Below, one piece after another: positions 6,333 to 33,471 of a stretch of DNA of 61,229 nt. The notes beneath the pieces were generated by a model. It saw only the letters and a program-made list of their open reading frames with translations. It was not told the DNA's origin and ran no database searches. Source of the DNA: an uncultured Clostridia bacterium (GTDB taxonomy: Bacteria > Bacillota > Clostridia > Oscillospirales > Acutalibacteraceae); the NCBI GenBank assembly GCA_947170465.1, contig CAMVTS010000007.1:1-61229 (forward strand), read 5' to 3'. A program made the position numbers and the translations under genes. Every line of letters begins with the position of its first letter. Position 1 is the stretch's first letter.

Positions 6333-6366
6333 AAAGGGTTCGGATTTCCGAACCCTTAGTTTTTTA
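6333..6366. terminator. Bidirectional terminator between ilvB and the LRR/dockerin gene
   Basis: AAGGGTTCGG-ATT-TCCGAACCCTT then TTTTTT. Confidence 0.7.
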
Positions 6367-7371
6367 CAATATGCCGTCGTCGTAGCCTGCGACGTACCGC
6401 TGAATCAGCGTGACGTCCTCTACGCTTACACGGTTGTCGTTGTTGACGTCGGCGAACGCCTGCGCAATCTGCTTGAAGTCGAGATACCCGGCGCAGTACA
6501 TCTGAATCTGCGTTGCGTCGGCGATATTCACGCTGCCGTCAAGGTTGGCGTCGCCGAATACATGCGCGTAGGTGTGATAATCCATGACGAAGTTCTCGTA
6601 GCAGTACTGAGCCGCGTAGGAATCCTCGATACACTGCACCTCCAATGTTGACTGTACCGACATGGGGTAGAGCGCGTAGGCGCCGATATTGCTGATGGCT
6701 TCGGGAATATACAGCTCCGTCATGCCGGCGTCGCCGCGAAACGCCGAAGCGCCGATGGTTTCAAGCGATTCCGGCAGGAATATCGTCTGCAGGGCGCTGG
6801 TTTCAAAGCAGCTTTCGCCAATGGCGGTCACGCCTTCGGGCACTGTCAGCGCCGTGATGCCGCTGTTGCGGAAGGAGGCTGTGCCGAGCCGCTTGACGTC
6901 AGACGGAAGCGTGACGGTCGCAAGCGCCGCGCAGTTCTGGAAAAGATAATCGCTGACCGATGTGATTTTCGTATCGGACAAATCCGCCGCCGTCAGACCG
7001 CTTTCGGCAAAGGCGCCCATATCTATCGCTGTGAGCGAGGACGAGAACTGCACGTTCTGCAGATTTTGACAGTCATAAAAGGCGTAGGAGCCGATATGGG
7101 CGTAGCTGTCGGGAATGCTGACGCTCGTCAGTCCGGTATGCGCGAAGCACCGGCTGGCAATGGAGGTCACCGGCAAATCGCCGAAGCTCTCCGGCAAGGT
7201 CAGCTCCGTGTCACTGCCAAGGTAGGCGTATAAGCCCCATTCGCCGTTGCTGTAGGTATACTGATAGGTGCCGTCGCTGACGGTCACCACCGTTCCTGCG
7301 GAAAAAGCAGAAGCAGACGTCACCACCAATGCAGCCGACAGAATGGCGGCTATTTTTTTGTGAAGCTTCAT
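6364..7371 (-). CDS. Secreted BspA-like leucine-rich-repeat protein with C-terminal type I dockerin
   Basis: Signal peptide; LRR_5 repeats (LTSVSIPDSYAHIGSYAFYDCQNLQNVQF); paired dockerin loops GDANLDGSVNIADATQIQMY and ADVNNDNRVSVEDVTLIQRY. Confidence 0.88.
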   Translation of the reverse strand: MKLHKKIAAILSAALVVTSASAFSAGTVVTVSDGTYQYTYSNGEWGLYAYLGSDTELTLPESFGDLPVTSIASRCFAHTGLTSVSIPDSYAHIGSYAFYDCQNLQNVQFSSSLTAIDMGAFAESGLTAADLSDTKITSVSDYLFQNCAALATVTLPSDVKRLGTASFRNSGITALTVPEGVTAIGESCFETSALQTIFLPESLETIGASAFRGDAGMTELYIPEAISNIGAYALYPMSVQSTLEVQCIEDSYAAQYCYENFVMDYHTYAHVFGDANLDGSVNIADATQIQMYCAGYLDFKQIAQAFADVNNDNRVSVEDVTLIQRYVAGYDDGIL

Positions 7372-7571: not shown

Positions 7572-7612
7572 ATTAATATGTAGAGATTATAAACTGTAAA
7601 GGAGTGTCCGCG

Positions 7613-8428
7613 ATGGGAGTTTTAAAGAGGCTTGCCAAGAGCTTTTCCAGCGAGAAGATGTCTGCCAAAAGCCGCAAAAGACTGATTATCTTTATCGCCA
7701 TCATCACCTTGCTATCCATGACAACCTCCACCGTCGCATGGTTTACGATTAACACCTTCGCCGGTGTAGAAAAGCTGGATGTCCACATCAGCGTAGCGGC
7801 ACAGTTAAAGGTGTCAATGGAAGACCACGGCACGAACCTTGACCAGTATGTCAAGACGATTACCAACGAAATGATAGACACCTATTTGGCAAAGCAAAAT
7901 ACAAAGCTTGCAGATATTGTACTCGATCCGGTAACCACCTCCGACGGCGTTCGTTTTGTCAATCAGCGTAATGTTGAACGGCAGCCGAATCAAAAATCCT
8001 ATCTGGAATTTGAGTGCTATTTTATCGCAACAGAGGATATGTGGGTACATCTCACAACCGAAGCGGCAGAGAATATACCCGGGAGCGAAGGAACCAAGGT
8101 GACGTCCAGTTCACCGTCTCCGCAGAATGACGTTGTCAACTGTACGCGTGTTGACTTCACCACGGATTCCAACGGTACGGCTACCTTTGAGAACAACAAA
8201 GGCACACAGGTGACGCAACTGAACACCTTTGACCTGCCGTCCGGCGCAATGGTGTATTCTGACAGCACACGCCTGTTCCACCTCGATGAAATGACGCCGA
8301 AAAAAGTCACCGTCCGTATTTGGATTGAGGGCGAGGATCCCGAATGTGATGACGATGTTCAGCTTGCAGAGTTGACTGTAGCAATGAGTTTCATCGGTTG
8401 TGACGACAGCAATACCCCGATTGCATAA
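7613..8428 (+). CDS. SipW-cognate signal peptide protein, TasA/camelysin-like (fibre protein 1)
   Basis: Start moved from GTG 7604 to ATG 7613 because AAAGGAG lies at 7598-7604. Signal region LIIFIAIITLLSMTTSTVAWFTIN; C-terminal VRIWIEGEDPEC. Confidence 0.7.
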   Translation: MGVLKRLAKSFSSEKMSAKSRKRLIIFIAIITLLSMTTSTVAWFTINTFAGVEKLDVHISVAAQLKVSMEDHGTNLDQYVKTITNEMIDTYLAKQNTKLADIVLDPVTTSDGVRFVNQRNVERQPNQKSYLEFECYFIATEDMWVHLTTEAAENIPGSEGTKVTSSSPSPQNDVVNCTRVDFTTDSNGTATFENNKGTQVTQLNTFDLPSGAMVYSDSTRLFHLDEMTPKKVTVRIWIEGEDPECDDDVQLAELTVAMSFIGCDDSNTPIA

Positions 8429-8457
8429 GATAACAAATCGTCCTTGGAGTGATTGAA

Positions 8458-9360
8458 ATGTTCGGAAAAAAGAAAACAAAAAGTGAACAGCCCATAACTC
8501 CAGAGGAGTTAAGTCAGTTAAATGACAAGCAGACAGCTGACCCGACGATACGAAAATTCCACGTCACTACCGACTCCGCCAAGATTATGGCGCTTAAAAA
8601 GCGGCGCAGAATTCTCAGTATCATTATCGGCGGCGTCGCGACCATGCTGTTGATTCTGTTTTTGGTTTCGCTGCTGGTCACCAAATGGGGCGATTTGGTC
8701 ATCGAGATTGACCGTCCGGCAGTTGCCAAGGGTTTTACCCTCAGCGAGAGCGAGGACTTTGCCAGCAAGTCGGTATCTCTCAGCGCCAAGCAGGCGCTTG
8801 ACGTTACCAACATCACCTACAGTTGGCTGCCCACCGACCTCGACACCAGCAAGGACGGCGAGCACAACGGTGATAATTACGTCGCCTATACCTTCTATAT
8901 GCGCAACGACGGCGAAGAACAGATTGACTACATCACCACCCTCGACATCACCGGTGTCGCCAAGTCCGCGGACGAAGCGGTTCGCGTGATGATTTACAAG
9001 AACGGTGAGCCGAGCATTTACGCCAAGGGTCAGTACGACGACCGTGAACAGCCCGAGACCGACGCAACGCGCTTTGTAGACGACAAGATTGTCATGCAGA
9101 CCAAGTCCGAGGCGTTCAAGCCCGGCGACGTGGACAAATACACCGTGGTCGTCTGGATTGAGGGCAACGACCCTGAATGCGTTGACGATATCCGCGACGG
9201 CTACGTCCGTATGAGAATGCTGTTCAAGCTCGACGACCCCGACGCTACCCAGAGCCCGTTCGGCGATTATTACAACAACGGCGAGCTGGTCGAGGACACC
9301 AAGAACTACAACGAAGGTCAGGGAATCGGCACGGACGTGACGACAGCCCCGGCAAACTAA
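8458..9360 (+). CDS. Membrane-anchored relative of the fibre proteins (fibre protein 2)
   Basis: About 65-aa basic N-terminus, then one TM (ILSIIIGGVATMLLILFLVSLLV) and a C-terminal domain with VVWIEGNDPECVDDI shared with protein 1. ATG 8458 preferred over GTG 8449. Confidence 0.65.
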   Translation: MFGKKKTKSEQPITPEELSQLNDKQTADPTIRKFHVTTDSAKIMALKKRRRILSIIIGGVATMLLILFLVSLLVTKWGDLVIEIDRPAVAKGFTLSESEDFASKSVSLSAKQALDVTNITYSWLPTDLDTSKDGEHNGDNYVAYTFYMRNDGEEQIDYITTLDITGVAKSADEAVRVMIYKNGEPSIYAKGQYDDREQPETDATRFVDDKIVMQTKSEAFKPGDVDKYTVVVWIEGNDPECVDDIRDGYVRMRMLFKLDDPDATQSPFGDYYNNGELVEDTKNYNEGQGIGTDVTTAPAN

Positions 9361-9371
9361 CATTGGTATTA

Positions 9372-9420
9372 AGCGCGCAAGCGCTGATATAATCAAAATA
9401 TCCCTATGGTGTTTTAGGGA
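9372..9420 (+). promoter_or_regulatory. Two consecutive hairpins in the leader of fibre protein 3
   Basis: AGCGC-GCAA-GCGCT (GNRA loop) at 9372-9385; TCCCTA…TAGGGA at 9401-9420, followed by an A/T tract. Confidence 0.45.
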
Positions 9421-9450
9421 CAAAAAATTATTTTTAGGAGGAATTTCTCA

Positions 9451-10302
9451 ATGAAAGCAAAATCAAGAAAGAGATTATTAATCTCGTCCGTAGCAATGCT
9501 GCTCGTAGCAATGCTCGCACTCGGAACCGCGACCTTCGCATGGTTTACAACTAGCCCTACTGCCAATGCAAGCGGTGTGATTTTAAAAGCAACCGCTTCA
9601 CAAGGTCTCAAAGTTTTAACAGAATCTCATAAGACTGCTGCACCTCAGGCAGAGTATCTGTCAAGTGATTATCTTAACTATGACAGTACTACACAAATTT
9701 CTTCTACGACTGCAAAATATTTGAACCCCGCTTCCTATGCTTTTACAGTTGGTTCTGCTCTTGGCACTCCTTTCAAAACAACTGCGGATAGCGACACTGC
9801 ATACAATGCTGACACATCTGCAGAAGTTGCACCTGCCACTGCTGGTTGGAGCGGTACTAACGATGTTTACGCTGAAAAGATTTACTGTAAATTAGTTGGC
9901 GCATCCTCATCTACTGACACAGCTGCTCTTTCACTTACTAGCGTTTCTATTTCAAATGTGACAGCTGAAGCGTATCCGATGATTAATTCTATGCGTGTTA
10001 TTATTACATATAACGGCGATGTAAAGGGCGCTTATGCATTACAGGCAGTAAACGGTGAAGTAACCTTATCGGCTGTCGGAACTCCGAATACTTACGAAAA
10101 TGCTACTAAGAGCACTGGCTCATTTACACAGTGGACAAGCGCTTCTAATGTTGCTCTCGGCAGCGTAGGAACTAGTGGAAATGATTACGTAGGTGTTCAT
10201 ATTTATCTTGATGGTGAAGATACAAACTGTAAATCTTCTAACATTAAGGTTGACAATCTGTTCAGCAACATTACCGTTAATCTTGCAATTCCCACCACTT
10301 AA
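9451..10302 (+). CDS. TasA-like SipW-cognate secreted protein, possible major subunit (fibre protein 3)
   Basis: MKAKSRKRLLISSVAMLLVAMLALGTATFAWFTTSPTANASG is a textbook SipW-cognate signal; strong AGGAGG RBS; C-terminal VHIYLDGEDTNC. Confidence 0.82.
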   Translation: MKAKSRKRLLISSVAMLLVAMLALGTATFAWFTTSPTANASGVILKATASQGLKVLTESHKTAAPQAEYLSSDYLNYDSTTQISSTTAKYLNPASYAFTVGSALGTPFKTTADSDTAYNADTSAEVAPATAGWSGTNDVYAEKIYCKLVGASSSTDTAALSLTSVSISNVTAEAYPMINSMRVIITYNGDVKGAYALQAVNGEVTLSAVGTPNTYENATKSTGSFTQWTSASNVALGSVGTSGNDYVGVHIYLDGEDTNCKSSNIKVDNLFSNITVNLAIPTT

Positions 10303-10354
10303 TCTTTTAAGTCTTAAATATTTGCTATAATAATATGAAATGGAGACCCTCTGA

Positions 10355-11077
10355 ATGAAAGTAGCTAAAAAAATATTTAATGTATTTATTGATATTGTTA
10401 TTGTATTGATAATGATTGTTTCCGTCATTACTGTAACCTTATCAATTACGTCGAAATCATCGGGGGTCTCCAATATTTTTGGTATTGCTCCTATGAGTGT
10501 AGCTTCAAACTCCATGGCAGATACTATCAATCAGGGAGATTTGATTTTCGGAAAGATTGATTCCAACAGAACCGAACCCTATGAGGTAGGTGATATTGTA
10601 TCGTTCTATCAGGAAATTGAAGGGCAGAATCAAATCAATACGCACCGCATTATCGAAGTGGTAAATGACGGTGGCGTGGTTTATTACAGAACTCAGGGCG
10701 ATAACAAAAACACTAATCCCGATCCAGATCCGGAACTTAAATCGCAGGATATGATTCTTGCGAAATATACCGGCACCAAAATCCCGGGTATCGGCAATTT
10801 CTTCAGTTTCATCAGAACTCAGCTTGGATTCTTCCTCGTGATTCTGCTGCCGATGATTCTCTTCTTTGTTTATCAGGCGATTCGTGTGATTATGAACATC
10901 ATCGCCTACAACAAGGAGAAGGCTGCCGAGGAAGCAGCGGCGGCTGTGGCAAACTCTGAACTCACAGAGGAGCAGAAACAGCGCGCGATTGAAGAGTATC
11001 TTGCCAAGCAGAAAGCACAGGAAAGTGAAACCGCGGTACAAACACCTGCCGACGGTGAATCTTCCGACGCTGAGTAA
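10355..11077 (+). CDS. SipW-type signal peptidase I (paralogue 1)
   Basis: MSVASNSMADTINQGDLIF (Ser), INTHRIIEV (His instead of Lys), YRTQGDNKNTNPDP; two TM segments. Confidence 0.88.
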   Translation: MKVAKKIFNVFIDIVIVLIMIVSVITVTLSITSKSSGVSNIFGIAPMSVASNSMADTINQGDLIFGKIDSNRTEPYEVGDIVSFYQEIEGQNQINTHRIIEVVNDGGVVYYRTQGDNKNTNPDPDPELKSQDMILAKYTGTKIPGIGNFFSFIRTQLGFFLVILLPMILFFVYQAIRVIMNIIAYNKEKAAEEAAAAVANSELTEEQKQRAIEEYLAKQKAQESETAVQTPADGESSDAE

Positions 11078-11100
11078 ACAAACAAAACAAATTTGTCCCT

Positions 11101-11234
11101 AATGCACGTAGGTGCAACTAACATTTGAACGGTCATTCTTTCCGGCCGAAAGGTCGGTCGGAAAGATAACCGTGCCTTATCCAAACACAAGGGCTTTGCC
11201 CGATAAATTAGAGAGATTTCAGCCGTAAGGCTGT
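11101..11234 (+). ncRNA. Candidate structured intergenic RNA (four stem-loops)
   Basis: TGCAC-GTAG-GTGCA; ACGGT/ACCGT plus TCTTTCCG/CGGAAAGA long stem with an apical GAAA; GGGC-TTT-GCCC; CAGCC-GTAA-GGCTG; then ATTTTTTT. Confidence 0.45.
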
Positions 11235-11264
11235 TGGTAGATTTTTTTAAGGAGACGATGAGCC

Positions 11265-12809
11265 GTGGATACAGTATTTGACTTTCTGTTTCAGTTTCTC
11301 GGCCAGTTTTTTGGCTCACTGTGGTCAATTATAACAGGCATTTTCAGCGGAATCGCTGGCATGTTCAACTTCCCGAAATATATCCAGATTATCAACGACT
11401 TTACCACGGAGCTCGGCGGTTTGGCATGGGTTATCGCAATTATCGCGATTATTCTGCTCGCCGCGCTGATGGGACTGATTGTCTGGCTCATTATCGTCGC
11501 CATAAAAAAGTTTATCAAGTCGCGCCGCAGCCGCAAGGACAACGCGTCGCTTGTCAAAGAAGTTCAGGCGCTCAACAAAGAGGTTATGCGCCTCAACCTC
11601 GAGAAGGACAAGATTCTCTCCATGAAGGTTTCTCAAATTGGTCTGAATCCCAACGAGATTGCCGAGCTTACCGGCGAGGAAATCGAAGCGCTCAACGCCG
11701 GCGGCGAAGAGGGCGACGAGGATACCGGCGGCATCCGCTTCCTCAAGCTTTGCCAGATCGACGAGGAATGGGCGGATTATCAGCCGCCTGTCTATGACAA
11801 CGACATCACCCTTCCGGAGTTCTGCGACCGCTTCCGTCTGTTCGCCTGCTCACGTCTGGGTCTGTTCTATGACATCAGCATGATTCGCCGTTTCGTGGCT
11901 GCTTTCGCTTCCACCAGACTGATTGTCTTACAGGGTATTTCCGGTACCGGTAAAACCTCACTTGCTTACGCCTTCGGTAAGTTCGTCTGCAATCCTTCCG
12001 TCATTACGCCGGTTCAGCCTTCCTGGCGTGACCGTTCCGAGCTGTTCGGCTACTTCAACGAATTTACCAAGAAATACAACGAAACCGAGTTGCTTCGCGC
12101 TATGTACGAAGCAAGATATAACGAAAACGTCTACCTGGTTATCCTCGATGAGATGAACATCGCGCGTGTTGAGTACTACTTCGCCGAGATGCTCTCTATT
12201 CTGGAAATGCCGAGACGCGAGGAATGGATTGTCGACCTCGTTCCCAGCCAGTGGAAGAACGACCCGAAGCTGCTTGACCACGGCAAATTCACCATTCCGC
12301 CAAACATGTGGTACTGCGGTACCATCAACAACGATGACTCGACCTTCGCCGTTACCGATAAGGTTTACGACCGTGCGATGCCGATTAACATCGACAACAA
12401 GGGCGTTGCCTTTGACGCACCCGACACACCGCCTGTTGTTATCAATTATCATCACTTTGAGGATATCCTCAACAAAGCAAAGGCGGACAATCCTGTTTCC
12501 GCTGACCTGCTCGATAAGCTCGCTTTGCTGGATGATTACATCATCAACCACTTCCGCGTAGCTTTCGGTAACCGTATTATGAAGCAGATTAAGGACTATG
12601 TTCCTGCTTATGTTGGCACCGGCGGAACCGAAATCGATGGTCTGGACTACATCCTCGCGCGTAAGGTACTGCGTAAGTTTGAGGCGCTGAACCTTTCCTA
12701 CATCCGCGACGAAATCGACGGCTTGATTGCCTACATGGACGAGCTTTTCGGCGAGGAGAATATGGGTGAGTGCAAGAGTTATCTGCTCATGCTCAAGAAA
12801 CTGGTATAA
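11265..12809 (+). CDS. Membrane-anchored McrB-like AAA+ ATPase
   Basis: N-terminal hydrophobic segments plus short coiled coil; Walker A GISGTGKTS, Walker B VYLVILDEMN, McrB-like VQPSWRDRSELFGYFNEFTKKY and GTINNDDSTFAVTDKVYDRA. GTG start. Confidence 0.8.
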   Translation: MDTVFDFLFQFLGQFFGSLWSIITGIFSGIAGMFNFPKYIQIINDFTTELGGLAWVIAIIAIILLAALMGLIVWLIIVAIKKFIKSRRSRKDNASLVKEVQALNKEVMRLNLEKDKILSMKVSQIGLNPNEIAELTGEEIEALNAGGEEGDEDTGGIRFLKLCQIDEEWADYQPPVYDNDITLPEFCDRFRLFACSRLGLFYDISMIRRFVAAFASTRLIVLQGISGTGKTSLAYAFGKFVCNPSVITPVQPSWRDRSELFGYFNEFTKKYNETELLRAMYEARYNENVYLVILDEMNIARVEYYFAEMLSILEMPRREEWIVDLVPSQWKNDPKLLDHGKFTIPPNMWYCGTINNDDSTFAVTDKVYDRAMPINIDNKGVAFDAPDTPPVVINYHHFEDILNKAKADNPVSADLLDKLALLDDYIINHFRVAFGNRIMKQIKDYVPAYVGTGGTEIDGLDYILARKVLRKFEALNLSYIRDEIDGLIAYMDELFGEENMGECKSYLLMLKKLV

Positions 12810-12897
12810 TCTCACATAGTATGCTTGCGGGATGTCAAAAAGTCTTTTCGGCATCCCAAAAGGCGTTTATTCAAAAGATAATTGAGGTGAAGTTGTT

Positions 12898-15417
12898 TTG
12901 GAAAATTTTGATCAGTATTATCGTTCCTATAAATACATGCAGAAGCACCTCGCGTCTGACTTTACCGCAAATTATCTTCACTCCAACATGGAGGACGCCG
13001 ACAACGGCAAGGACGTGCTCTCCGGTAAGCTCCATGAAAAGGTTATCGACATGGAATGGGTTATCGCGATTGAGGATACCCTTCCTTACATTGAAAAAGC
13101 AATCGACGAACAGCGCCGCTTCATCATTGAAAACAATGAGGTTTATCGTATTGACAAGGCGAAAATTATTAACAAGGATTCAGTCAAGCACCTGATTCAG
13201 CACACCAACTTTATCGACAGCATTGACGAGCACGGTAAGGTTACGCCGAATAAGGTTCTCACCATTGAACGTGAGGACAGCTTTGAAACCTACGAGAACC
13301 GCTTCCTCATTACGCTGATTGAAACCGCGCTGAACTTTGTTGCGGATAAATATCGCAAGATGGTGGACGCGCCCACAGATACCTACAATAAGGTGGAAAT
13401 GGAGCGCGATTTGGTGCTGAATAACCAGCGCATCACCTTCAGAACAGAATATTCCAACGAGGTTAAGGACGCACAGGACGCGTTGCTCGACGTCAAGGAT
13501 TACGAGAAGCTCTCGGATTTTGACCGTGTACGCCGTATCCGTGAAAAATTAAATTCTTTCCTCAATACCGATATGATGATTGCGCTCAAGAAGTGCATTC
13601 GCGTCAAGCCGCCCATCAACCGCACCAACCTGATGACCAAGAACCCGAACTACAAGGCGTCGCTGGATTTGTTCACCTATCTTGGCGCCTACAATAAGCC
13701 GGGTTATGAAATCATCGGAAAAGAGTTTTCCGGTAAGATGGATAAGGACGTGCAGGAAGCAGTCTATATGTCTCAGGGTTTCCAGCATTTCATGATTAGT
13801 ATCGCTACGAACCCGGCGCTCAAGAGAATGTTGGAGGAGCGCTATCAGGAATCAAAATCCGGCCGCGGCAAGGCAGGCGACTCCGAGTTGGCGGAAATGA
13901 TTGAAAAAGTCCGCCAGGAAGAAATGAAAATCCGCTTGCAGGAAATCCGCGAGCGCGAGAAAATAATCCGTGACCAGAAATCTGAAATCGCTGCGCTGAA
14001 ACGCGAAATAGAAAAACGTGACCGCACGATTGAATCCCTCAAGAGCACTATCAAACAGCTTGAGGAGCAGGTCAAAGAACTCAAGAACGAACTGCAGAAG
14101 GTCAAGGCAGAGCTTATCAAGGCGAAGGAACGTATCGCTGAGCTGGAAGCCAAGGTTGCCGAACTTGAAGCGCGTATCGCCGAGCTGGAAGCCATGGTGG
14201 CGGCGCTCACCGCACAGGTTGCGGAGCTTGAAGCGCAGAAGGCGGCGCTCGAAGCCAAGGTTGCCGAGCTGGAGCAGGTTGTTGAAGAACAAAAAGCTAA
14301 AATTGCCGAGCAGGAGCGCACGATTATCAGTCTCCGTCAGCGTATTGAAGAACTGGAAGTCTACGTCGCCGAACTGGAAAAGACAAAGGCGCAGTTAGAG
14401 CAGAAAGTCAGCGCACTTGAAGCTGAGAACGCCGAGCAGAAAACTACCATCGCCACACACGAAGCGACAATTGCAACGCAGCTGGCGGCTATCGCCGGGC
14501 TGGAAACCGAAATTGCCGGCGCGAAGTCGCAGCTTGCCGACCTCAACAGCACGCTTTCACAGCGTGAAGCCACTATTGTCGAGCAGACCGAAAAAATCAA
14601 CGGACTCACCGGTAATGTGGCACAGCTTACTTCTGATTTGGCAGCCGAAAAGCAGGCGCGCCGTGACGAGGTAGAAGCGCTTAACAAGAAATTTGAAGAT
14701 GAAAAGGCTGCTATGCTCGCGGCGCAGAACGCCGAGCGTGAACGCCTTGAAAAAGCGCATCAGGCAGCGCTTGATAAGCTCGATAAACAGAAAGAAAACG
14801 AAAAGGCGAAAATCCAGAAGGATGCTGACAGCCGCGTGAAGTCGGTTCAGAAAGAAGCCGACAGCCGCGTCAAGACAGTCCAGAAGGACGCCGAAAAGAA
14901 GGCGCAGACGCAAATCCGCGAAGCCAACAAAAAGGCGAGCTCCGCAGCTGCCATGTACAAGAAGGAACTCAAAATCGACCGTGGCAACGACGGACTCTTC
15001 AAGTTTGACTTCCCGGTCGGCGCACTGGGCGTGCAGGGCATGAAGGCGGTTTCGCTCGCCGCAAACGGCGATGACATGAGCCGTCTGCCGAACAGCAGAA
15101 ATTTGCAGTGTCTCTTCATTGTCAGCGACGGCAAGAAGGTCACCCTCTATTCCGGCTCACACAACAAGCTGCAGGTCATTCAGAATTTCCGCAACACCAC
15201 AGACATCAACGTATGCCGGGAGGCGGTGGCAGAAAATCTGCAAAACGCCGATACCTCCTGCGCGTACCTCACTTATAAATCCGTAGACAAAAATCTCGTC
15301 AGCAATTTCGCTGCCTACCTCAAATCCGCGGCGAAATTTGCGGCAACCCAGACATTCCACAACAAATCGCAGAAAAGCGGTAAATCCGCGTTAGGTATTT
15401 ACTTCTACAGAGGTTAA
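12898..15417 (+). CDS. DUF2357-like N-terminal domain with long coiled coil (McrB partner-like)
   Basis: TTG start with GAGGTGA RBS. N-terminus HTNFIDSIDEHGKVTPNKVLTIEREDSFETYENRFLITLIETAL resembles DUF2357 proteins encoded next to McrB ATPases; ~350-aa heptad-rich region (AELEAKVAELEARIAELEAMVAAL…). Confidence 0.65.
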   Translation: MENFDQYYRSYKYMQKHLASDFTANYLHSNMEDADNGKDVLSGKLHEKVIDMEWVIAIEDTLPYIEKAIDEQRRFIIENNEVYRIDKAKIINKDSVKHLIQHTNFIDSIDEHGKVTPNKVLTIEREDSFETYENRFLITLIETALNFVADKYRKMVDAPTDTYNKVEMERDLVLNNQRITFRTEYSNEVKDAQDALLDVKDYEKLSDFDRVRRIREKLNSFLNTDMMIALKKCIRVKPPINRTNLMTKNPNYKASLDLFTYLGAYNKPGYEIIGKEFSGKMDKDVQEAVYMSQGFQHFMISIATNPALKRMLEERYQESKSGRGKAGDSELAEMIEKVRQEEMKIRLQEIREREKIIRDQKSEIAALKREIEKRDRTIESLKSTIKQLEEQVKELKNELQKVKAELIKAKERIAELEAKVAELEARIAELEAMVAALTAQVAELEAQKAALEAKVAELEQVVEEQKAKIAEQERTIISLRQRIEELEVYVAELEKTKAQLEQKVSALEAENAEQKTTIATHEATIATQLAAIAGLETEIAGAKSQLADLNSTLSQREATIVEQTEKINGLTGNVAQLTSDLAAEKQARRDEVEALNKKFEDEKAAMLAAQNAERERLEKAHQAALDKLDKQKENEKAKIQKDADSRVKSVQKEADSRVKTVQKDAEKKAQTQIREANKKASSAAAMYKKELKIDRGNDGLFKFDFPVGALGVQGMKAVSLAANGDDMSRLPNSRNLQCLFIVSDGKKVTLYSGSHNKLQVIQNFRNTTDINVCREAVAENLQNADTSCAYLTYKSVDKNLVSNFAAYLKSAAKFAATQTFHNKSQKSGKSALGIYFYRG

Positions 15418-15419
15418 AT

Positions 15420-16757
15420 ATGAGCAGGAAAACAGGCAGCGGCAGGCGCTTCATGATTGCCAAAAACTTAATAATGATGCTTGCGACGCTGGCTGCGATT
15501 CTTGTTGCGATTTTCGCGTGGTTTGGTTCAAACAACGAAGCAAAAGCCAGTGGCATCTCCATGAAAACCAAAACTCCGGACAAGATTGAACTGGCGGTTC
15601 CAGATAAAGTGGAGGTTGATGGCAAGATTGTGGATTCTTTCCCTCTTGACAATCTGAAATGGAAAACCTCATTAGATTTTTCTTTGTCCGGCTATCTGAA
15701 AAACATGGTAAAAGATGTCACCAGTGACGGTAAGCAGTTTGCGGTTCCGAACTTTGCCGCGGCGAATAACCTGGCAGAGGGCAGAAGGGTAATCGCAGAC
15801 GACGTATGGGTAGATGGTTTATCCAGCAAAGAGGCACTGACTAACGACAAACCAAATGATGACGATCAGTATCATTACGTTTCGCTGGATTTTTATGTAC
15901 GTTCGCTGCAGCCTAATCCGGTGCGTATCACAGAGGATTCGTATCTTGCCGCGGGCTCTGAGATTGGCATCAAAGACGATTTAACGGATGGCGGCAAGGA
16001 TAGTGCAAGATTACTGAAAGGCAGTAATGTTTACCGCCCCAGTTCCTATGGCGCGTCTAAAAGCGATGATTCGTTTTCAGCCGATGCTATAATCGGCGCC
16101 ATGCGCGTGTCGCTTGTCGGGGCGCAGGTTGATTCGGTTCAGACAACTTCTCATGACACAATTGATTCCGTTACGCAGGAACAGGTGACCAGAGATGTCA
16201 CCACCGAGACCGCCTACAACGGCGGTACCTGGGCTAAGAAGGCTGCGTTGAAGCTTCTTTGGCTGCCGCGTCCGGATATTTATCTGCAGACGGACAACAA
16301 TCAGGATCAGTGGAAACTGTATACTGACATTAAACCGAACAGCGAACTGGCCAGTAAAACCTATATTCATTCTTTCTATTTGGGACAAACTCAACCAGAC
16401 GGAACTGCTTCTGTCAAAAAGGGACTGACCTATACACAGTATAGTGATGCAAATGTAAAAACAATAGACGGCACTGCTGACCACGATGGTGTCTATAAAG
16501 TGAGTAAAATCGACATTAATGACAAAGAGCTGGGTAAGACAAAAGGTTACTATCCGACTTTTGGACAGCAGCAGGAAATAGCGAGTGGTTCAACACCTTC
16601 CCAGATTACGTTTGTGGAAAGTGCAACTAATCCGACAACAACGGGTTATTACGTTTATAAATTCACATTGAATCTGTGGATTGAAGGCGAGGACGCTGAG
16701 GCTCGTCGTTCAATGAACACCGGCATATTCAATCTGATGCTTGGCTTTGAGGCATAA
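15420..16757 (+). CDS. SipW-cognate secreted protein (fibre protein 4)
   Basis: IAKNLIMMLATLAAILVAIFAWFGSNNEAKASG signal; C-terminal LNLWIEGEDAEARR; starts 2 nt after the DUF2357-like stop codon. Confidence 0.7.
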   Translation: MSRKTGSGRRFMIAKNLIMMLATLAAILVAIFAWFGSNNEAKASGISMKTKTPDKIELAVPDKVEVDGKIVDSFPLDNLKWKTSLDFSLSGYLKNMVKDVTSDGKQFAVPNFAAANNLAEGRRVIADDVWVDGLSSKEALTNDKPNDDDQYHYVSLDFYVRSLQPNPVRITEDSYLAAGSEIGIKDDLTDGGKDSARLLKGSNVYRPSSYGASKSDDSFSADAIIGAMRVSLVGAQVDSVQTTSHDTIDSVTQEQVTRDVTTETAYNGGTWAKKAALKLLWLPRPDIYLQTDNNQDQWKLYTDIKPNSELASKTYIHSFYLGQTQPDGTASVKKGLTYTQYSDANVKTIDGTADHDGVYKVSKIDINDKELGKTKGYYPTFGQQQEIASGSTPSQITFVESATNPTTTGYYVYKFTLNLWIEGEDAEARRSMNTGIFNLMLGFEA

Positions 16758-16799
16758 CGCGGTCAGATACAACAAAATACGATGAAAAGAGGTGAAATT

Positions 16800-18074
16800 A
16801 TGGGCAAATTCAGAAGCAGATTCTCTGCAATGGTTTTTAATGCAGTGGCTTCGCGAAAAACGAGCAAGAAACAACTCGCCTTGTCTGTAATTTCACTTTG
16901 TCTTGCGGCAGTGGTTCTGATCACCGGAACCTACTGCTGGTTCGCGCTGTCTAAGAGTAAGGCGGAAGGTAATAACATCAACCTTGTTGTCGGAAACGGT
17001 TTGCGTGTAAACGACTTGGGTGAGGCTTCACAGAAGTTTAACGACAAATCCTATCTGCAGCCTGCCTCCTCGGTAGACGGCAGAAACTTGTTTTTTCCAA
17101 CAGACGGCACCGATTTTTCAAAGGAAACTGCGTCAATGACATTCCGCAGTGCCAACGCCGGTGACCGTAATTACAATTACGTTCAGCTGGACTTCAACCT
17201 GACCGCTGAAGCAAACTACACCAGTATTTATCTCGATAAAAACACCAGTCTGAAAATTGAAGTTCCCAATCAGAGCGAGTTCGCCAGCCCGGATGATTAC
17301 GAGGCTTATAAGACGAAGGCGGAGAGAGCTGAAAAAGCACTGCGTATGGCGATTTATTACGACGGCATGGATAAGCCGGTCGTTTTCACCTCACAAATGA
17401 ACCCTTGGCCGCTTGATGCGGTGAAGGATATTGACCGTACAACCGGTCGTTTTCTGGAAAGCGCCAACCAGGTTGCCTATCCGTTTAAGGATTATTCCTA
17501 CGGAAAAAATCAACTTGCTGTTCTCAACCAGGGCGAAACCAGACCATTTTCACTGATTATCTGGCTGGAAGGAACCGATACAGAAAACTGTATCAGCGAC
17601 GCAGTAATGCTTAAACAGCTGGTACTGAACCTGACGTTTACTACCTCCTGGGACAACACCGAAGAGATTACATTTGAGGATGCAACAGAGGGATACAGCG
17701 TACGCCAGCTTCTGAAAGATTATCCTGCTTATTCCCTGGTGCTGGATTATGACGATTCCGTACACAATGTCAACCACATGAGATTTACCATGCAGAAGGC
17801 AGAAGCAACACAGGATAATTATCAGTGGAAGTGTAATCTTCCCGGTATTGCTCATAACAACATCCGTTTCCTTGTACTGGACGGTTCAGGAAATATAGTT
17901 GAGGAATGGAGCAAAACAACGGGAGGCGCGTCAACACTGAACCGTGGCACAGCGACCAAGTATACGGCGGATACGTTAGCGCTCAAAGACTCATGCGGAC
18001 ACTGGTATGACGGTGATATTGAACAGCATGGCGAGGGTCACGACAGCGGTGTCCCGGATGACGATGATTGGTAA
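16800..18074 (+). CDS. SipW-cognate secreted protein (fibre protein 5)
   Basis: LALSVISLCLAAVVLITGTYCWFALSKSKAEG signal; LIIWLEGTDTENC motif. ATG 16800 follows GAGGTGA. Confidence 0.68.
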   Translation: MGKFRSRFSAMVFNAVASRKTSKKQLALSVISLCLAAVVLITGTYCWFALSKSKAEGNNINLVVGNGLRVNDLGEASQKFNDKSYLQPASSVDGRNLFFPTDGTDFSKETASMTFRSANAGDRNYNYVQLDFNLTAEANYTSIYLDKNTSLKIEVPNQSEFASPDDYEAYKTKAERAEKALRMAIYYDGMDKPVVFTSQMNPWPLDAVKDIDRTTGRFLESANQVAYPFKDYSYGKNQLAVLNQGETRPFSLIIWLEGTDTENCISDAVMLKQLVLNLTFTTSWDNTEEITFEDATEGYSVRQLLKDYPAYSLVLDYDDSVHNVNHMRFTMQKAEATQDNYQWKCNLPGIAHNNIRFLVLDGSGNIVEEWSKTTGGASTLNRGTATKYTADTLALKDSCGHWYDGDIEQHGEGHDSGVPDDDDW

Positions 18075-18095
18075 TTAAGGAAAGGAGGCGCTGCT

Positions 18096-20678
18096 ATGAA
18101 AAAAAAGAATAAAAAAAATGTTCTGCTGTCAGTAGCGGCGTTTATCCTTGTGGCTGTCACGGTTGTAGGTGTGACGTATAGCTGGATTGACGATGTAAAG
18201 CTGGTACAATTCCAGAACGCTGACGTCAGCGACGGCGCTCCGCTGAAAACCGGCGTCGATATCAATGCCAACGTGAATATCACATCAGCAGATACTTCAG
18301 TCAATCTTGGTAATCTGCTGGGGTTGAATGAATACACGTATTCTTACTCTGATGGCGATAATCAGAAAACCCACATCCGCTATGACGGCAGCAATGACGA
18401 CAGTAAAAAGCCAAATTGGAATACAATCAACCAGAACAAAGGTTACTTCTATGAATCGGGAGACATGCATTTGTCGCCTTGCTACAGCGATGGCGAGACC
18501 TTCTATTTCCCGACCAGTCAGGAGAACGTTTACCGCGAAGGCAACAAGGACGACGAAAACGTCAACTACATCAGCTTTACGGTTAAGGTGAGCTCGCCGG
18601 AGCAGAATGTTGATTTGTGGTTTGAGGAAGAACCGTCAATCTGCTATCTGGACAGCAACGATACTTTGCAGTCGATAGAGCAAGCGCGTTTTGCGATTAG
18701 TATTGACGGTAAATCCCACATATATTCTCCTACCGGAGAAGCACTGACCTGTAACAACGATCTGAACGACACGACAGATGTACAGGGCGTCAGAAAGACA
18801 ACTGAGTATACCTATAACCATTCCGACAATGACAATGCCCGCGGTACAAACAGCAACGTCCTCTTTTCTATCAAAAAGGGCGGTACTGTTACCATGAATG
18901 TCAAAATCTGGCTTGAAGGCGGCTATGATACCAATATTACCGCTTCCAATATCAACTTCAAGCTGATTTCTTCGCGCAACATGACACGTGAGTTTGTTAT
19001 TGTTGACAGAACTACATCAAACTCCAAAAAGAGCTGGTTGGATGACGATGGTGCTACCATGTTTATGACGTTTCCCTCGGTTTTGGATATGTATACACGC
19101 ACATTGATGGGAAACGATTATAATTCAGAGGAAGAAGATCCGGCTGATTACTGGGACGACTTACGAAATGATATACGCCATCGTTTCCCGGATGCACCTT
19201 TTTACGAATTAAAAAAGGATGCAGCAACGTCAACCGCTATGGGATTTGATGTTCTGTCTCCCTATATAGGCAGTACAAAGGTGGAAATCCCCTATTATTT
19301 CAACGGTGAAGAAATGATTATTTTCCGTTGTACAAATCAGGGGTGGAATACTTATGCGACAAATAATGACAATCAGATTGTGACCCCCAAGCGAAGTGAC
19401 TACAAGGTTTATGCGTGGAACTGGTGGCAGACGACTATTCCAAACGCTTATTCCACCGGCGTCTATACACTCTATGGTGGTTCTCACGATCAATACGCAG
19501 CTCCTATTTTCACAGACGATAAAAAAGCAAATACCGATTTGGGTTACGGAACATGGGGCGATGTTATCACTATTACAGTAGAACAATCCTACAATGGAGT
19601 GGATTGGGCGAAGAAAAATAGTGATAACAACAACGTATACATCCGAGATTATACGGATGCAGATACGACAGGGGAAACTTATATTCACTCCATGTACTGG
19701 GATACCAACAAATGGACAGCAACGATTCCAAAGTCATCTGTTTTATTGCAGTTTAATTACACAGAGAACCAAAGTATTCTAGGTTGTTACGGTTATAATT
19801 CCTACAACAGCACAAACCCGCAGCAACGACCGGAAGGGTCATTAAAATACACCTTTACTGTTAAGCGTGACAATGATAGTAATACAAACGGTATGGGATA
19901 TTGGGAGGGTGCCAACCATATTTATATGATTAAAAACGGGGTTTTTGCGACGGCATCTACACTGAAGGCGCATATTTTCTATAAGCATAAAACAGATAAT
20001 AACGCCGATTTAACGGTTGTCAACGCCGCATTCCCAGGTGCTGACCTGAGTGTGGTGGAAAACGTAGACTATAAGGGAAAGAGTGTATACCAGTCGCAGG
20101 AGCTTGACGCGTCCCCCGGGCTCTATCCAGACAGAAGGGTCGAAGGATATAAAAGCGATTATATGGACACACAAGTCGTATTTAATAATGGCAGTGATTC
20201 AACGAAGACCAATGACTTACTCGTTTTCCCGGGTTGCTATTACAACCCGGAAGGAAATGAATGGTTAGGCAGCCTCCACGGCAAGGGAAGAGCCGCTGCT
20301 ATAACAGATACCGACGACGGCACCGACGATAGTGGCGGCGGAGATTCGTCTGCAGACCATGGCGATATGACTGGCTATACGACGGAGACGAATTTTGTTT
20401 TCAAAATCAGTGGTAAGGAATATAAGGCGTATTCCAATGGTACGAATTATCGTGTTAAACTGCCGCTCAAGGTTGGCGACAACTGGACAACGGTTTTGGA
20501 AGGCAGTACTAACTACGGTCTGGAAGAGGCAAGCAAGTACTATACTGCTCCCGGCGGATCGGTAAATATTAACAGCGCACACAGAAATAACTTCTCGTTC
20601 AGAGCGTTTGCAGCGGGTAACTATGTCATTCAGTTTACCAAGAGCGGAGATACGCTGAGCCTGACGAGCTTGAGCTGA
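18096..20678 (+). CDS. Large SipW-cognate-like secreted protein (fibre protein 6)
   Basis: VLLSVAAFILVAVTVVGVTYSWIDD signal; VKIWLEGGYDTN motif; long unassigned C-terminal region. Confidence 0.6.
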   Translation: MKKKNKKNVLLSVAAFILVAVTVVGVTYSWIDDVKLVQFQNADVSDGAPLKTGVDINANVNITSADTSVNLGNLLGLNEYTYSYSDGDNQKTHIRYDGSNDDSKKPNWNTINQNKGYFYESGDMHLSPCYSDGETFYFPTSQENVYREGNKDDENVNYISFTVKVSSPEQNVDLWFEEEPSICYLDSNDTLQSIEQARFAISIDGKSHIYSPTGEALTCNNDLNDTTDVQGVRKTTEYTYNHSDNDNARGTNSNVLFSIKKGGTVTMNVKIWLEGGYDTNITASNINFKLISSRNMTREFVIVDRTTSNSKKSWLDDDGATMFMTFPSVLDMYTRTLMGNDYNSEEEDPADYWDDLRNDIRHRFPDAPFYELKKDAATSTAMGFDVLSPYIGSTKVEIPYYFNGEEMIIFRCTNQGWNTYATNNDNQIVTPKRSDYKVYAWNWWQTTIPNAYSTGVYTLYGGSHDQYAAPIFTDDKKANTDLGYGTWGDVITITVEQSYNGVDWAKKNSDNNNVYIRDYTDADTTGETYIHSMYWDTNKWTATIPKSSVLLQFNYTENQSILGCYGYNSYNSTNPQQRPEGSLKYTFTVKRDNDSNTNGMGYWEGANHIYMIKNGVFATASTLKAHIFYKHKTDNNADLTVVNAAFPGADLSVVENVDYKGKSVYQSQELDASPGLYPDRRVEGYKSDYMDTQVVFNNGSDSTKTNDLLVFPGCYYNPEGNEWLGSLHGKGRAAAITDTDDGTDDSGGGDSSADHGDMTGYTTETNFVFKISGKEYKAYSNGTNYRVKLPLKVGDNWTTVLEGSTNYGLEEASKYYTAPGGSVNINSAHRNNFSFRAFAAGNYVIQFTKSGDTLSLTSLS

Positions 20679-20704
20679 AATACAGATAAAAAGGTGGTGA
20701 TACC

Positions 20705-22015
20705 ATGAAACTGAATAAAAAACTGGCGGTGGCGATACTCGCGCTCGTTGTAGGAATTACATCATTTATTCCGTCGACGTTTTCATGGTATGACCATGAC
20801 GACACGCTTTCCGGTGTGAAGATGGGGTACAGCCGGGAGAATCTTCCTGTTTCTTCCGGTGAAGCAAGCAACCTGCACATGACCACCAAAAAATACCGTA
20901 TGGACGGTAAAAAGGTGTTCTATGATGATAAGGGCAACAAGGAGTACGCGAAAACGAACTACGACGGAACAGGAACAGAGCTTCCTCCCATCAATACAGA
21001 CTCGGTAGCTCCCGATACCACTCAGTACTATGGCACAACTTTCACGAACTATAACAGCGCACCGGCATATGTAAACTTGTACCTCAAGGATTTCTCCAAT
21101 AATCCAAATAATTACATTGGCACAACTGCGCCGAGCTTGACGCACAAGGGTTTATCATCAACTGTTCATCTGAAAAACCGCAATCAGGTTCGTGTATACT
21201 GTCAGTTTTTTGCCGCCAACGACTGGAAAGAAGACGGCGCGAAACGTTATCTTGTATATAAGGTAAAGGGAGACGACACTTTTCATTACAGCGAAATCAC
21301 ACAACAGACACCGACAAAGATTACAGTCAAAGAAGGTAACGCAGATGTTGCCAAAGATACCTATTATGCGGATTTGCCGGATCATACTACCGAGTTTTTC
21401 TTTGCAACAGACGGAAAAAAATCTGGCTTTGTCGGAAGCGAGGGTGTCTTTTCCAGCGTAACCAATCCGTGGTACAGAAGCAATACGATTACCAACATTC
21501 AGCCGGGCGTATGCTATCGCCTTACCGGTGCGTCAGATGATACGACGTGGTTTGCGGCGCATACAACGGTTGACGTACCGAACGGCATCAGCATTATGAC
21601 CAGCTTCGATACGCTTACGATCAGTGGCGGTCAGAGTGCATACGTTACGTTGACAGGCGGCACTAACTTTACCGGTGTCAGCGCATCATACGCGTGTACC
21701 GGAGATAATCTTTCGGTCAACGCCAATACCGGTTATGTCACTGCGTCTGCCGGATTTTCAAGCGGCACCATTACCACGACTGTTACAGGCGGTCTGGGAG
21801 ATATAACAACTTTTGAGACACAGGTTTCCAATCCCGAAACATTGAAATCTGTGACAGTTGCGATGAATGTTGAGGTTCCCGGAGCCACACCGGATCCGGA
21901 TGATGACAAGAAAATCATTCCCGGAAAAACAGAGATTGTTTGGTATATCGCCAATGAACAGACAGGGGCTTCTTCGGGGGAAGCAGCGTTTACTGCGATT
22001 TATTACACCAAATAA
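20705..22015 (+). CDS. Secreted protein with SipW-like signal and Ig-like segment (fibre protein 7)
   Basis: KLAVAILALVVGITSFIPSTFSWYDHDD; later TISGGQSAYVTLTGGTNFTGVSASYACTGDNLSVNANTGYVTASAG resembles a Big-type fold. No clear WxEGxD motif. Confidence 0.55.
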   Translation: MKLNKKLAVAILALVVGITSFIPSTFSWYDHDDTLSGVKMGYSRENLPVSSGEASNLHMTTKKYRMDGKKVFYDDKGNKEYAKTNYDGTGTELPPINTDSVAPDTTQYYGTTFTNYNSAPAYVNLYLKDFSNNPNNYIGTTAPSLTHKGLSSTVHLKNRNQVRVYCQFFAANDWKEDGAKRYLVYKVKGDDTFHYSEITQQTPTKITVKEGNADVAKDTYYADLPDHTTEFFFATDGKKSGFVGSEGVFSSVTNPWYRSNTITNIQPGVCYRLTGASDDTTWFAAHTTVDVPNGISIMTSFDTLTISGGQSAYVTLTGGTNFTGVSASYACTGDNLSVNANTGYVTASAGFSSGTITTTVTGGLGDITTFETQVSNPETLKSVTVAMNVEVPGATPDPDDDKKIIPGKTEIVWYIANEQTGASSGEAAFTAIYYTK

Positions 22016-22018
22016 ACG

Positions 22019-22579
22019 ATGAAAGAAAGAAACTTACAGATTATGCGCCGCGTGAAGAATATCGCTTTGATAGCGATAATCGCGGCGCTCGCTGTTGTCA
22101 TGGCGTTTACGGTGATTTCGCGCATGATAGGTATGCCGCCGACGATATTTGGATTGACGATGTACCGCGTCAGCTCCGGAAGCATGGAACCGGCGTTAGC
22201 AGTCGGGGACATCATTATTGTGCAGGATTGTGGCGGAAACACAGTCAAAGAAAATGACATTGTTTCCTATCTGTCCGATTCCGGAGAGACGACAGGGCAA
22301 ATTGTCACACACCGGGTAGTCAGGGCGCCGTACCAAAAAGGCGACGCGACATATCTGGTGACAAAGGGCGACGCCAATTCAGCCGAGGATCGCCCTATAT
22401 TGGTAGCACAAGTAAAGGGCAAAATGCTGTGTAAACTGCCGTTTTTGAAATGGCTGTTTGACATCTTTTCAACACCTTGGGGCATGCTGGCGCTGATTGC
22501 GCTGGTGCTTTTGGCTTTTTCCGGTGAAATTATCCAGCTGATAAAAACCCTTCGCGGTAACGAAAAACCGAATAACTAA
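22019..22579 (+). CDS. SipW-type signal peptidase I (paralogue 2)
   Basis: YRVSSGSMEPALAVGDIIIVQD, IVTHRVVRAP, LVTKGDANSAEDRP; N- and C-terminal TM segments. Confidence 0.9.
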   Translation: MKERNLQIMRRVKNIALIAIIAALAVVMAFTVISRMIGMPPTIFGLTMYRVSSGSMEPALAVGDIIIVQDCGGNTVKENDIVSYLSDSGETTGQIVTHRVVRAPYQKGDATYLVTKGDANSAEDRPILVAQVKGKMLCKLPFLKWLFDIFSTPWGMLALIALVLLAFSGEIIQLIKTLRGNEKPNN

Positions 22580-22582
22580 GTT

Positions 22583-32680: not shown

Positions 32681-32691
32681 TTGAATTTCTG

Positions 32692-32720
32692 AAAAAGGGT
32701 TGTTTTTACAACCCTTTTTT
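32692..32720 (+). terminator. Rho-independent terminator
   Basis: AAAAAGGGTTGT-TTTT-ACAACCCTTTTTT. Confidence 0.75.
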
Positions 32721-32757
32721 ATTATAATAAAAACATCAAAGCATAAGGAATACCGCC

Positions 32758-33471
32758 ATGAAAATGAGTCTGAAAGAAAAAATATACCACAAAATCCCCG
32801 AAAGCAAGCGCGAAGGAGCTGTCAAGGCGGTTCACGCGCTGCGGATTGCCAAGAACATCATCTGTTGGAGCTTGATTATCGTATTGGTTATCATCGTGAT
32901 TGTCTCGCTGATGATGCGCATGCGCGGCGAAACGCCAGCCATTTTTGGCTATACCTTGCAGCGCGTTTCAACGGGAAGCATGGTGCCGGCTCTGGAGGTT
33001 GGAGACGTATTCCTGAGCAAAAACGTAGACGACGTGAACATACTTGCTGTCGGCGATATTATCACCTACGAGGGCGGAGCCAATTTTGACTACAAGCATG
33101 TTACCCACCGCGTGGTGGCGGCTCCTTATAAAGATGATACCGGCGCATTGGTGCTTCGCACAAAGGGTGACGCGAACAATACAGAAGACCCGGTTCTTCC
33201 TGCTGAGCGCGTGGAATCGAAATACATTGTCAAAATCACGTTCCTCACGAAGCTCTATGAGGTGTTCCTCTCACCCTGGGGACTGCTGATTTTCGTCGGG
33301 CTGCTGTTGTTGGTGTTCTTTGACGAGCTGTTAAATGTTGTCCGGATTCTCAGCGGCAATTACTCTGACGAGGACGAGGAGGATATCAACGACATTATCG
33401 CGCGGATTCAGCGTGAGGACAAGGAAAAGGCGCTTGCCGAGAAAAAGCCGGAGGACGAGAATGCAGACTAA
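32758..33471 (+). CDS. SipW-type signal peptidase I (paralogue 3)
   Basis: QRVSTGSMVPALEVGDVFLSK, YKHVTHRVVAAP, LRTKGDANNTEDP. Confidence 0.9.
   Translation: MKMSLKEKIYHKIPESKREGAVKAVHALRIAKNIICWSLIIVLVIIVIVSLMMRMRGETPAIFGYTLQRVSTGSMVPALEVGDVFLSKNVDDVNILAVGDIITYEGGANFDYKHVTHRVVAAPYKDDTGALVLRTKGDANNTEDPVLPAERVESKYIVKITFLTKLYEVFLSPWGLLIFVGLLLLVFFDELLNVVRILSGNYSDEDEEDINDIIARIQREDKEKALAEKKPEDENAD

What the first reader, a model, noticed from the sequence alone, without database searches (positions are those of the whole stretch)
11265..15417. McrB-like AAA+ ATPase and DUF2357-like coiled-coil protein embedded in a SipW/TasA-type fibre operon
Directly seen: a GTG-start protein with N-terminal membrane segments and a McrB-style AAA+ core (GISGTGKTS; VILDEMN; GTINNDDSTF). 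It is followed by an 839-aa protein with a DUF2357-like N-terminus, ~350 aa of coiled coil and a separate C-terminal domain. The second ORF ends 2 nt before the ATG of a SipW-cognate secreted protein (15420), and sipW paralogue 1 lies upstream, so co-expression with the surface proteins is likely. Established: DUF2357 proteins normally pair with McrB-like NTPases in type IV restriction-like/McrBC-type systems, usually with a PD-(D/E)XK nuclease. I see no obvious nuclease motif here. Inference: this pair may have been recruited to power, gate or remodel a surface fibre, or it may be a membrane-tethered defence module hitch-hiking in the operon. I know of no description of this architecture.
Basis: partly seen in the sequence, partly recalled or inferred. 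Interest (0 to 1): 0.88.

Follow-up and report, generated by a model that had tools for sequence, protein, structure and literature searches.

The report
Nuclease-less McrBC pair in surface-protein operon
Two genes related to a DNA-cutting anti-virus machine have lost the cutting part, gained a membrane anchor, and for a long evolutionary time have travelled with genes for secreted surface proteins, so they more likely drive or control the cell surface than cut DNA; the type was named in print in 2024 ("CoCoPALM") but its job is unknown.

Summary
ORF1 (11265-12809, 514 aa) is a membrane-anchored McrB-like AAA+ NTPase. ORF2 (12898-15417, 839 aa) is a DUF2357 (McrC-type) protein with a long coiled coil. 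No PD-(D/E)xK domain was found: the C-terminal domain folds like part of a DegV/FakB fatty-acid-binding protein. The architecture is not undescribed: it fits the "CoCoPALM" group named in eLife 2024 (PMC11090510), whose function is unpublished. Synteny is very strong: of 95 non-redundant homologous loci, 92 carry SipW-type peptidase, 90 the DUF2357 partner and 83 secreted proteins, all same-strand; ordinary McrB-like genes in 54 other genomes have no SipW hit within 200 kb. No full-length copy was found in phages, plasmids or viral contigs. Second finding: a membrane-anchored surface protein (8449-9360) co-occurs with the NTPase (19 genomes each, 18 shared, P about 4e-21), whereas SipW is in 88 of 150. 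In one SipW-less clade the pair stays next to another membrane-anchored exoprotein. Best explanation: a membrane AAA+/DUF2357 machine acting on an anchored surface-protein complex. A hitch-hiking defence cassette is disfavoured; defence of another kind is not excluded. Fibre formation, motor activity and nucleotide preference are untested.

The parts
7604..8428 (+). secreted surface protein with SipW-type signal peptide motif (called TasA0a here); first gene of the gene string
8449..9360 (+). membrane-anchored exoprotein (called TasA0b or 'anchor' here): cytosolic tail, transmembrane helix (within residues 32-78), beta-sandwich ectodomain, no SipW-type AWF motif
   Evidence: alignment A6; AlphaFold2 pLDDT 81.0; 19 genomes, 18 shared with the 19 that have ORF1
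9451..10302 (+). secreted protein with SipW-type signal peptide (LGTATFAWFT), called TasA1 here
   Evidence: no TasA/camelysin family match
10355..11077 (+). sipW1, SipW-type signal peptidase I
   Evidence: TIGR02228 76.9 bits over cut-off 51.85; NF046067 E=1.7e-32, below its own cut-off
11265..12809 (+). ORF1: membrane-anchored McrB-like AAA+ NTPase, 514 aa, GTG start
   Evidence: PADLOC PDC-M26A E=3.4e-42
11415..11501 (+). ORF1 transmembrane segment (residues about 51-79), followed by a basic/helical stretch (about 82-120)
   Evidence: hydropathy; weak FtsL-like match E=0.0087
11934..11960 (+). ORF1 Walker A GISGTGKTS (residues 224-232)
   Evidence: invariant
12138..12158 (+). ORF1 Walker B VILDEMN (residues 292-298)
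12327..12338 (+). ORF1 McrB signature NNDD (residues 355-358)
   Evidence: invariant in 17; N-x-D-D in 97 of 97
12898..15417 (+). ORF2: DUF2357 (McrC-type) protein with coiled coil, 839 aa, TTG start
13051..13374 (+). ORF2 stretch matching Pfam DUF2357 (residues 52-159)
   Evidence: PF09823 24.8 bits, cut-off 23.3; the only DUF2357 match in the genome
13873..14964 (+). ORF2 coiled-coil stretch (residues about 326-689); length varies from absent to long among homologues
14938..15414 (+). ORF2 C-terminal DegV/FakB-like domain (residues 681-839); found in 16 of 96 homologues
   Evidence: AlphaFold2 pLDDT 88.5 / pTM 0.83; Foldseek top 38 hits all DegV/FakB, best E=4.2e-6; TIGR00762 E=1.4e-5 in homologue L113
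15420..16757 (+). secreted protein with SipW-type signal peptide (TasA2)
16782..18074 (+). secreted protein with SipW-type signal peptide (TasA3)
18096..20678 (+). secreted protein with SipW-type signal peptide (TasA4)
20705..22015 (+). secreted protein, SipW-type signal peptide motif (TasA5)
22019..22579 (+). sipW2
   Evidence: TIGR02228 84.9 bits
22582..22604 (+). strong intrinsic-terminator-like hairpin after sipW2: likely 3' end of the operon

Best explanation
The pair is a CoCoPALM-type module, a relative of McrBC that has become part of a cell-surface protein system. Shown by computation: ORF1 has a membrane segment and intact AAA+ NTPase motifs; ORF2 carries the DUF2357 domain of McrC; neither has a recognisable nuclease; the pair is co-inherited with SipW, secreted proteins and a membrane-anchored exoprotein. 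Inferred: ORF1 forms an McrB-like hexameric ring on the cytosolic face of the membrane; the DUF2357 part of ORF2 inserts in the ring and stimulates NTP hydrolysis, as McrC does for McrB; instead of delivering a nuclease, ORF2's coiled coil (with its DegV-like tip in this lineage) reaches to a membrane or cytosolic partner. The most likely partner is the anchored protein at 8449-9360, whose tail is predicted to lie on the same side of the membrane. NTP turnover would then pull, remodel or gate that anchor and so control assembly, release or turnover of the SipW-processed surface proteins. The direction of the work (build, release or disassemble) is not determined.
For: Motifs invariant in 17 of 17 and nearly all of 97 homologues. 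DUF2357 above cut-off. SipW 92, partner 90 and secreted proteins 83 of 95 non-redundant loci, all same strand. Independent Bacilli sample: 34 of 34 partner, 26 of 34 SipW. Ordinary McrB-like genes in 54 phylum genomes: no SipW hit within 200 kb. Anchor and NTPase co-occur: 19 genomes each, 18 shared, Fisher P=4.5e-21, against SipW in 88 of 150 genomes; both exceptions are incomplete genomes whose loci end at a contig edge. In the SipW-less clade a different anchored exoprotein with a cytosolic tail follows the pair. Distance correlations: ORF1-ORF2 0.93, ORF1-SipW 0.74, ORF1-anchor 0.76, permutation maximum 0.14. 83 of 83 CoCoPALM-type rows lie on one side of a branch (97/98). Minimal ORF2s of 361-410 aa are DUF2357 with little else, so activation of the NTPase may be the core job.
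Against: No biochemistry; contact between the pair and the anchor was not modelled. Co-inheritance also follows from shared vertical descent: no housekeeping gene was used as a control for the distance correlations, and the Fisher test treats related genomes as independent. Most SipW loci work without the pair (19 of 88 SipW-bearing genomes in the family have it), so it is not needed for SipW secretion as such. TasA homology of the secreted proteins is not shown. The DUF2357 profile finds no solved McrC chain by sequence.
Confidence: 0.58

Rival explanations
1. Membrane-tethered defence: the pair senses phage at the surface (or uses the surface proteins as bait) and triggers an abortive response through an effector not yet recognised.
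For: The wider family is McrBC/CoCoNuT, predicted defence (PMC11090510); ORF1 matches the PADLOC candidate PDC-M26A at E=3.4e-42; patchy presence (19 of 150 family genomes).
Against: No nuclease or HEPN-like gene family is conserved in the neighbourhood; no full-length match in 50,697 phage or 72,556 plasmid records, and none in viral contigs; slow, clade-like evolution and co-inheritance with surface genes; the PDC-M26A match centres on the AAA+ core, which other McrB-like proteins share.
Confidence: 0.2
2. Quality control: an AAA+ extractor that removes misfolded or stalled surface-protein precursors from the membrane, not an assembly motor.
For: Membrane AAA+ architecture beside a signal peptidase and many precursors; no dedicated protease is needed if it only unfolds.
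Against: No protease domain or conserved protease neighbour besides signal peptidases; DUF2357 partners in McrBC stimulate hydrolysis and are not known as substrate adaptors (own knowledge).
Confidence: 0.12
3. Regulatory switch: the pair gates the surface system in response to a signal (nucleotide, c-di-GMP, lipid) and does little mechanical work.
For: EAL-domain genes, some with HD-type domains, sit in the same gene string in 31 loci; DegV/FakB-like domain in 16 of 96 ORF2s.
Against: No EAL gene is in the window's operon, and those found look degenerate at several catalytic positions; only part of a DegV fold is present in the window, so fatty-acid binding is not implied.
Confidence: 0.08
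4. Chance neighbours: an unrelated NTPase pair inserted in the operon.
For: Gaps of 187 and 88 nt separate ORF1 from its neighbours, one holding a stable hairpin.
Against: Conserved order across Ruminococcus, Oscillospiraceae, Christensenellaceae and Bacilli; P=4.5e-21 for co-occurrence with the anchor.
Confidence: 0.02

Closest known systems
[quoted passage not shown] eLife 2024, PMC11090510)
   Same: McrB-like NTPase fused to a membrane/coiled-coil segment, DUF2357 partner with coiled coil, association with signal peptidase-family proteins; NNDD motif fits their 'NxD followed by a second D'.
   Different: The text read does not mention the anchored exoprotein, the SipW-less Bacilli clade, the coiled-coil-less minimal partner, EAL neighbours or the DegV-like C-terminal domain; supplementary tables could not be read.
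McrBC type IV restriction (McrB + McrC)
   Same: AAA+ core aligns to McrB structures 6hz4/6ut6; DUF2357 partner.
   Different: Membrane-anchored, no DNA-binding specificity domain recognised, no PD-(D/E)xK nuclease.
CoCoNuT systems / TerY-P-associated McrBC (PADLOC PDC-M26-like; locus L074 in genome G110)
   Same: Related AAA+ and DUF2357 proteins, coiled coils.
   Different: CoCoNuTs have a nuclease in the operon; here none is conserved. L074 is in a kinase/phosphatase/VWA context (by eye) and lies outside the CoCoPALM-type branch.
B. subtilis tapA-sipW-tasA operon
   Same: SipW-type peptidase with secreted proteins in one operon; TasA is a jelly-roll fibre subunit assembled by donor-strand exchange (PMC9674648).
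   Different: No TasA family match; an AAA+/DUF2357 pair and an anchored exoprotein are present; the TasA paper searched does not mention ATP.
DegV/FakB fatty-acid-binding proteins
   Same: Fold of ORF2 C-terminal domain (Foldseek E=4.2e-6, probability 1.00).
   Different: Only about 150 aa, equal to part of the two-domain protein; no sequence match for the window's own domain.

Membership tests
CoCoPALM | McrB-like AAA+ core | tested here: met
CoCoPALM | NxD instead of NxxD signature | tested here: inconclusive
   N355-N-D-D358: satisfies NxD followed by a second D (N-x-D-D in 97 of 97), but the ungapped alignment to McrB also satisfies NxxD
CoCoPALM | FtsB-like transmembrane plus coiled coil fused to the NTPase | tested here: inconclusive
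   Transmembrane segment clear; FtsB/FtsL likeness only a weak match, E=0.0087
CoCoPALM | DUF2357 partner, usually with coiled coil | tested here: met
CoCoPALM | association with signal peptidase-family proteins | tested here: met
CoCoPALM | place in the published GTPase tree | not testable with these tools
   supplementary files not available; own tree puts the CoCoPALM-type rows on one side of a branch, 97/98
McrBC type IV restriction | PD-(D/E)xK nuclease on McrC | tested here: not met
   C-terminal domain absent in most homologues and DegV-like in the window
CoCoNuT | nuclease (HEPN or other) in the operon | tested here: not met
   no such conserved neighbour cluster in 95 loci; individual neighbours were not all scanned for nuclease domains
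TasA/camelysin fibre proteins | TasA sequence family or jelly-roll fold | tested here: inconclusive
   no family match; anchor model is a beta-sandwich with only weak hits, rank 5 being Pyrobaculum bundling pili 7ueg, E=2.8e-3 but TMq 0.22
SipW-type signal peptidase | match over a curated signal peptidase model | tested here: met
   TIGR02228 76.9 and 84.9 bits, cut-off 51.85; the Bacillus-specific SipW model NF046067 is below its cut-off
DegV/FakB | complete two-domain DegV protein | tested here: not met
   159 aa, TMt 0.38 to the closest DegV

The most novel reading that the evidence does not exclude
CoCoPALM is an NTP-driven assembly or release machine for a SipW-processed surface filament: a restriction-type AAA+/DUF2357 engine re-used to act across the membrane on a dedicated anchor protein. 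No energised assembly machine is known for TasA-type filaments (own knowledge).
Probability: 0.35. Interest if true: 0.85.

Novelty: new member of a known kind. Interest (0 to 1): 0.6.

Why it matters
It gives a concrete, testable partner (the anchored exoprotein) to a group that so far has a name but no published function, and shows that the McrBC engine has a nuclease-free, membrane-bound branch tied to the cell surface in gut and rumen Firmicutes. If the motor reading is right, an antiviral restriction engine was converted to surface work, and SipW-type surface systems would have an energised form.

Tried and rejected
Degenerate PD-(D/E)xK at the ORF2 C-terminus: rejected by fold. Defence island or mobile cassette: not supported. 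TasA identity by sequence: Pfam, NCBIfam and PDB profile searches gave nothing useful. DUF2357 profile against PDB chains: no McrC hit. Rfam: no match in the window. My second-round C-terminal domain profile was built from mis-cut sequences and matched everything; only the first round (16 of 96) is used. Literature for PDC-M26, and for SipW with McrB or Ruminococcus, gave nothing relevant.
Full report
What is there. The two ORFs exist as described. ORF1 (GTG 11265 to 12809, 514 aa) has a strong hydrophobic segment near residues 51-79 and a complete set of McrB-type AAA+ motifs; these motifs are conserved in essentially all of 97 homologues, and its profile aligns to solved McrB chains. ORF2 (TTG 12898 to 15417, 839 aa) shows DUF2357 above the Pfam cut-off when its N-terminal part is scanned alone, then a coiled coil, then a separate C-terminal domain. 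It is the only DUF2357 match in the genome.

No nuclease found. The C-terminal domain of ORF2 was found in only 16 of 96 homologues; many others end in the coiled coil, and Bacilli-type partners of 361-410 aa have little beyond DUF2357. For the window's domain, AlphaFold2 gave pLDDT 88.5 and pTM 0.83, and the first 38 Foldseek hits against the PDB are all DegV/FakB fatty-acid-binding proteins (best E=4.2e-6). The longer homologue L113 matches TIGR00762 (DegV) at E=1.4e-5. The window's domain corresponds to only part of DegV, so lipid binding is not implied.

Neighbourhood. Within the family, 19 of 150 genomes have an ORF1 homologue of this type (over 400 bits), nearly always with ORF2 next door. 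The genome scan found at least 574 relatives, of which the 80 closest were read. Gene clustering over 95 non-redundant loci gives SipW in 92, ORF2 in 90 and secreted proteins in 83, all on the same strand. The typical order is secreted protein, anchored protein, secreted protein, SipW, ORF1, ORF2, further secreted proteins, SipW. Because the 80 loci are the closest relatives, an independent sample was drawn from an order of Bacilli: 34 loci read from 117 genomes, 34 with the partner and 26 with SipW. The eight without SipW form a supported clade (100/94); some of these have short flanks. In the loci examined there, ORF1-ORF2 is followed by a protein with a cytosolic tail, a transmembrane segment, a DxDGDG-type stalk and a C-terminal beta-like domain (read by eye), and in L230 by a type I signal peptidase (PF10502; L237 has a very similar protein). 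As a negative control, 54 other genomes of the phylum have ordinary McrB-like matches at or below about 130 bits, and none of these lies within 200 kb of a SipW match.

The anchored protein. The protein at 8449-9360 has a cytosolic tail, one membrane helix and a beta-sandwich ectodomain. In 150 family genomes it occurs at over 170 bits in 19, ORF1 occurs in 19, and 18 are shared (Fisher P=4.5e-21). The two exceptions are incomplete assemblies whose loci stop at contig ends (the G019 contig begins in sipW; the G029 contig is 4472 bases). SipW itself is in 88 of the 150. So the pair tracks the anchor more than SipW in general. Vertical descent contributes to such patterns, and the distance correlations (ORF1 with its neighbours 0.74-0.93) have no housekeeping control.

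Not mobile. No match covering 80% of ORF1 was found in phages or plasmids, and no relative in viral contigs.

Operon. All genes from 7604 to 22579 are on the + strand; a strong terminator-like hairpin follows sipW2 at 22582 and another lies before the operon at 6334. The 187-nt gap before ORF1 holds a very stable hairpin without a U tract (z=-5.25). Promoter predictions are at the chance level (26 found, 24.8 expected). One transcript is plausible, not shown.

What is known. [quoted passage not shown] a library search found no later paper. The window fits that description. The NNDD motif satisfies NxD followed by D but cannot be told from NxxD, so that feature is inconclusive, as is FtsB homology. 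GTP preference is unknown.

How it likely works. By analogy with McrBC (established knowledge), a ring of ORF1 would be stimulated by the DUF2357 part of ORF2. With no nuclease and a membrane anchor, the work is most simply directed at the membrane side, and the anchored exoprotein is the best candidate partner. The direction of work and any fibre are inference. TasA-type fibres in B. subtilis assemble by donor-strand exchange (PMC9674648); whether these secreted proteins form fibres is not known, and the structural hint (7ueg, TMq 0.22) is too weak to count.

Scoring. The specific window is a new member of a known, functionally uncharacterised kind. Interest 0.6: a very consistent association, a new candidate partner and an unexpected DegV-like domain, but no function shown.

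Noticed in passing
31 loci, e.g. L064:1970-2770, L065:5254-6003, L067:10750-11502: EAL-domain proteins (PF00563 E to 1.4e-49) lie about 4 kb upstream on the same strand; several catalytic positions look lost, and some (L132, L139) carry an added HDxGK-like domain. Suggests a c-di-GMP link in part of the group.
   Followed up: partly
L230, L236-L239 (Bacilli): SipW-less clade: ORF1-ORF2 is preceded by a conserved gene of about 357-374 aa and followed by an anchored protein with DxDGDG stalk; L230 and L237 also lie beside cell-division genes (mraZ, rsmH, ftsL-like, penicillin-binding protein), judged by eye.
   Followed up: partly
L074 (G110:C303): A divergent McrB/DUF2357 pair beside VWA, PP2C-like and kinase-like genes (TerY-P-like, judged by eye) in a genome that also carries the CoCoPALM-type pair.
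   Followed up: partly
window 11137-11166: Very stable 13-bp hairpin (UCUUUCCGGCC...) in the sipW1-ORF1 gap, no U tract, single copy in the window; region z-score -5.25.
   Followed up: partly
window 22823-33471: 3285-aa surface protein with InlB B-type repeats followed by a third SipW-type peptidase (32758-33471); all three SipW matches of the genome lie in this window.
   Followed up: partly
window 6364-7371 (-): Protein with leucine-rich-repeat-like part and a dockerin-like C-terminus, convergent with the upstream acetolactate synthase-like gene (read by eye).
   Followed up: no
G586, G590 (Bacilli): Two CoCoPALM-type copies in one genome, one from the SipW-linked and one from the SipW-less clade.
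   Followed up: no
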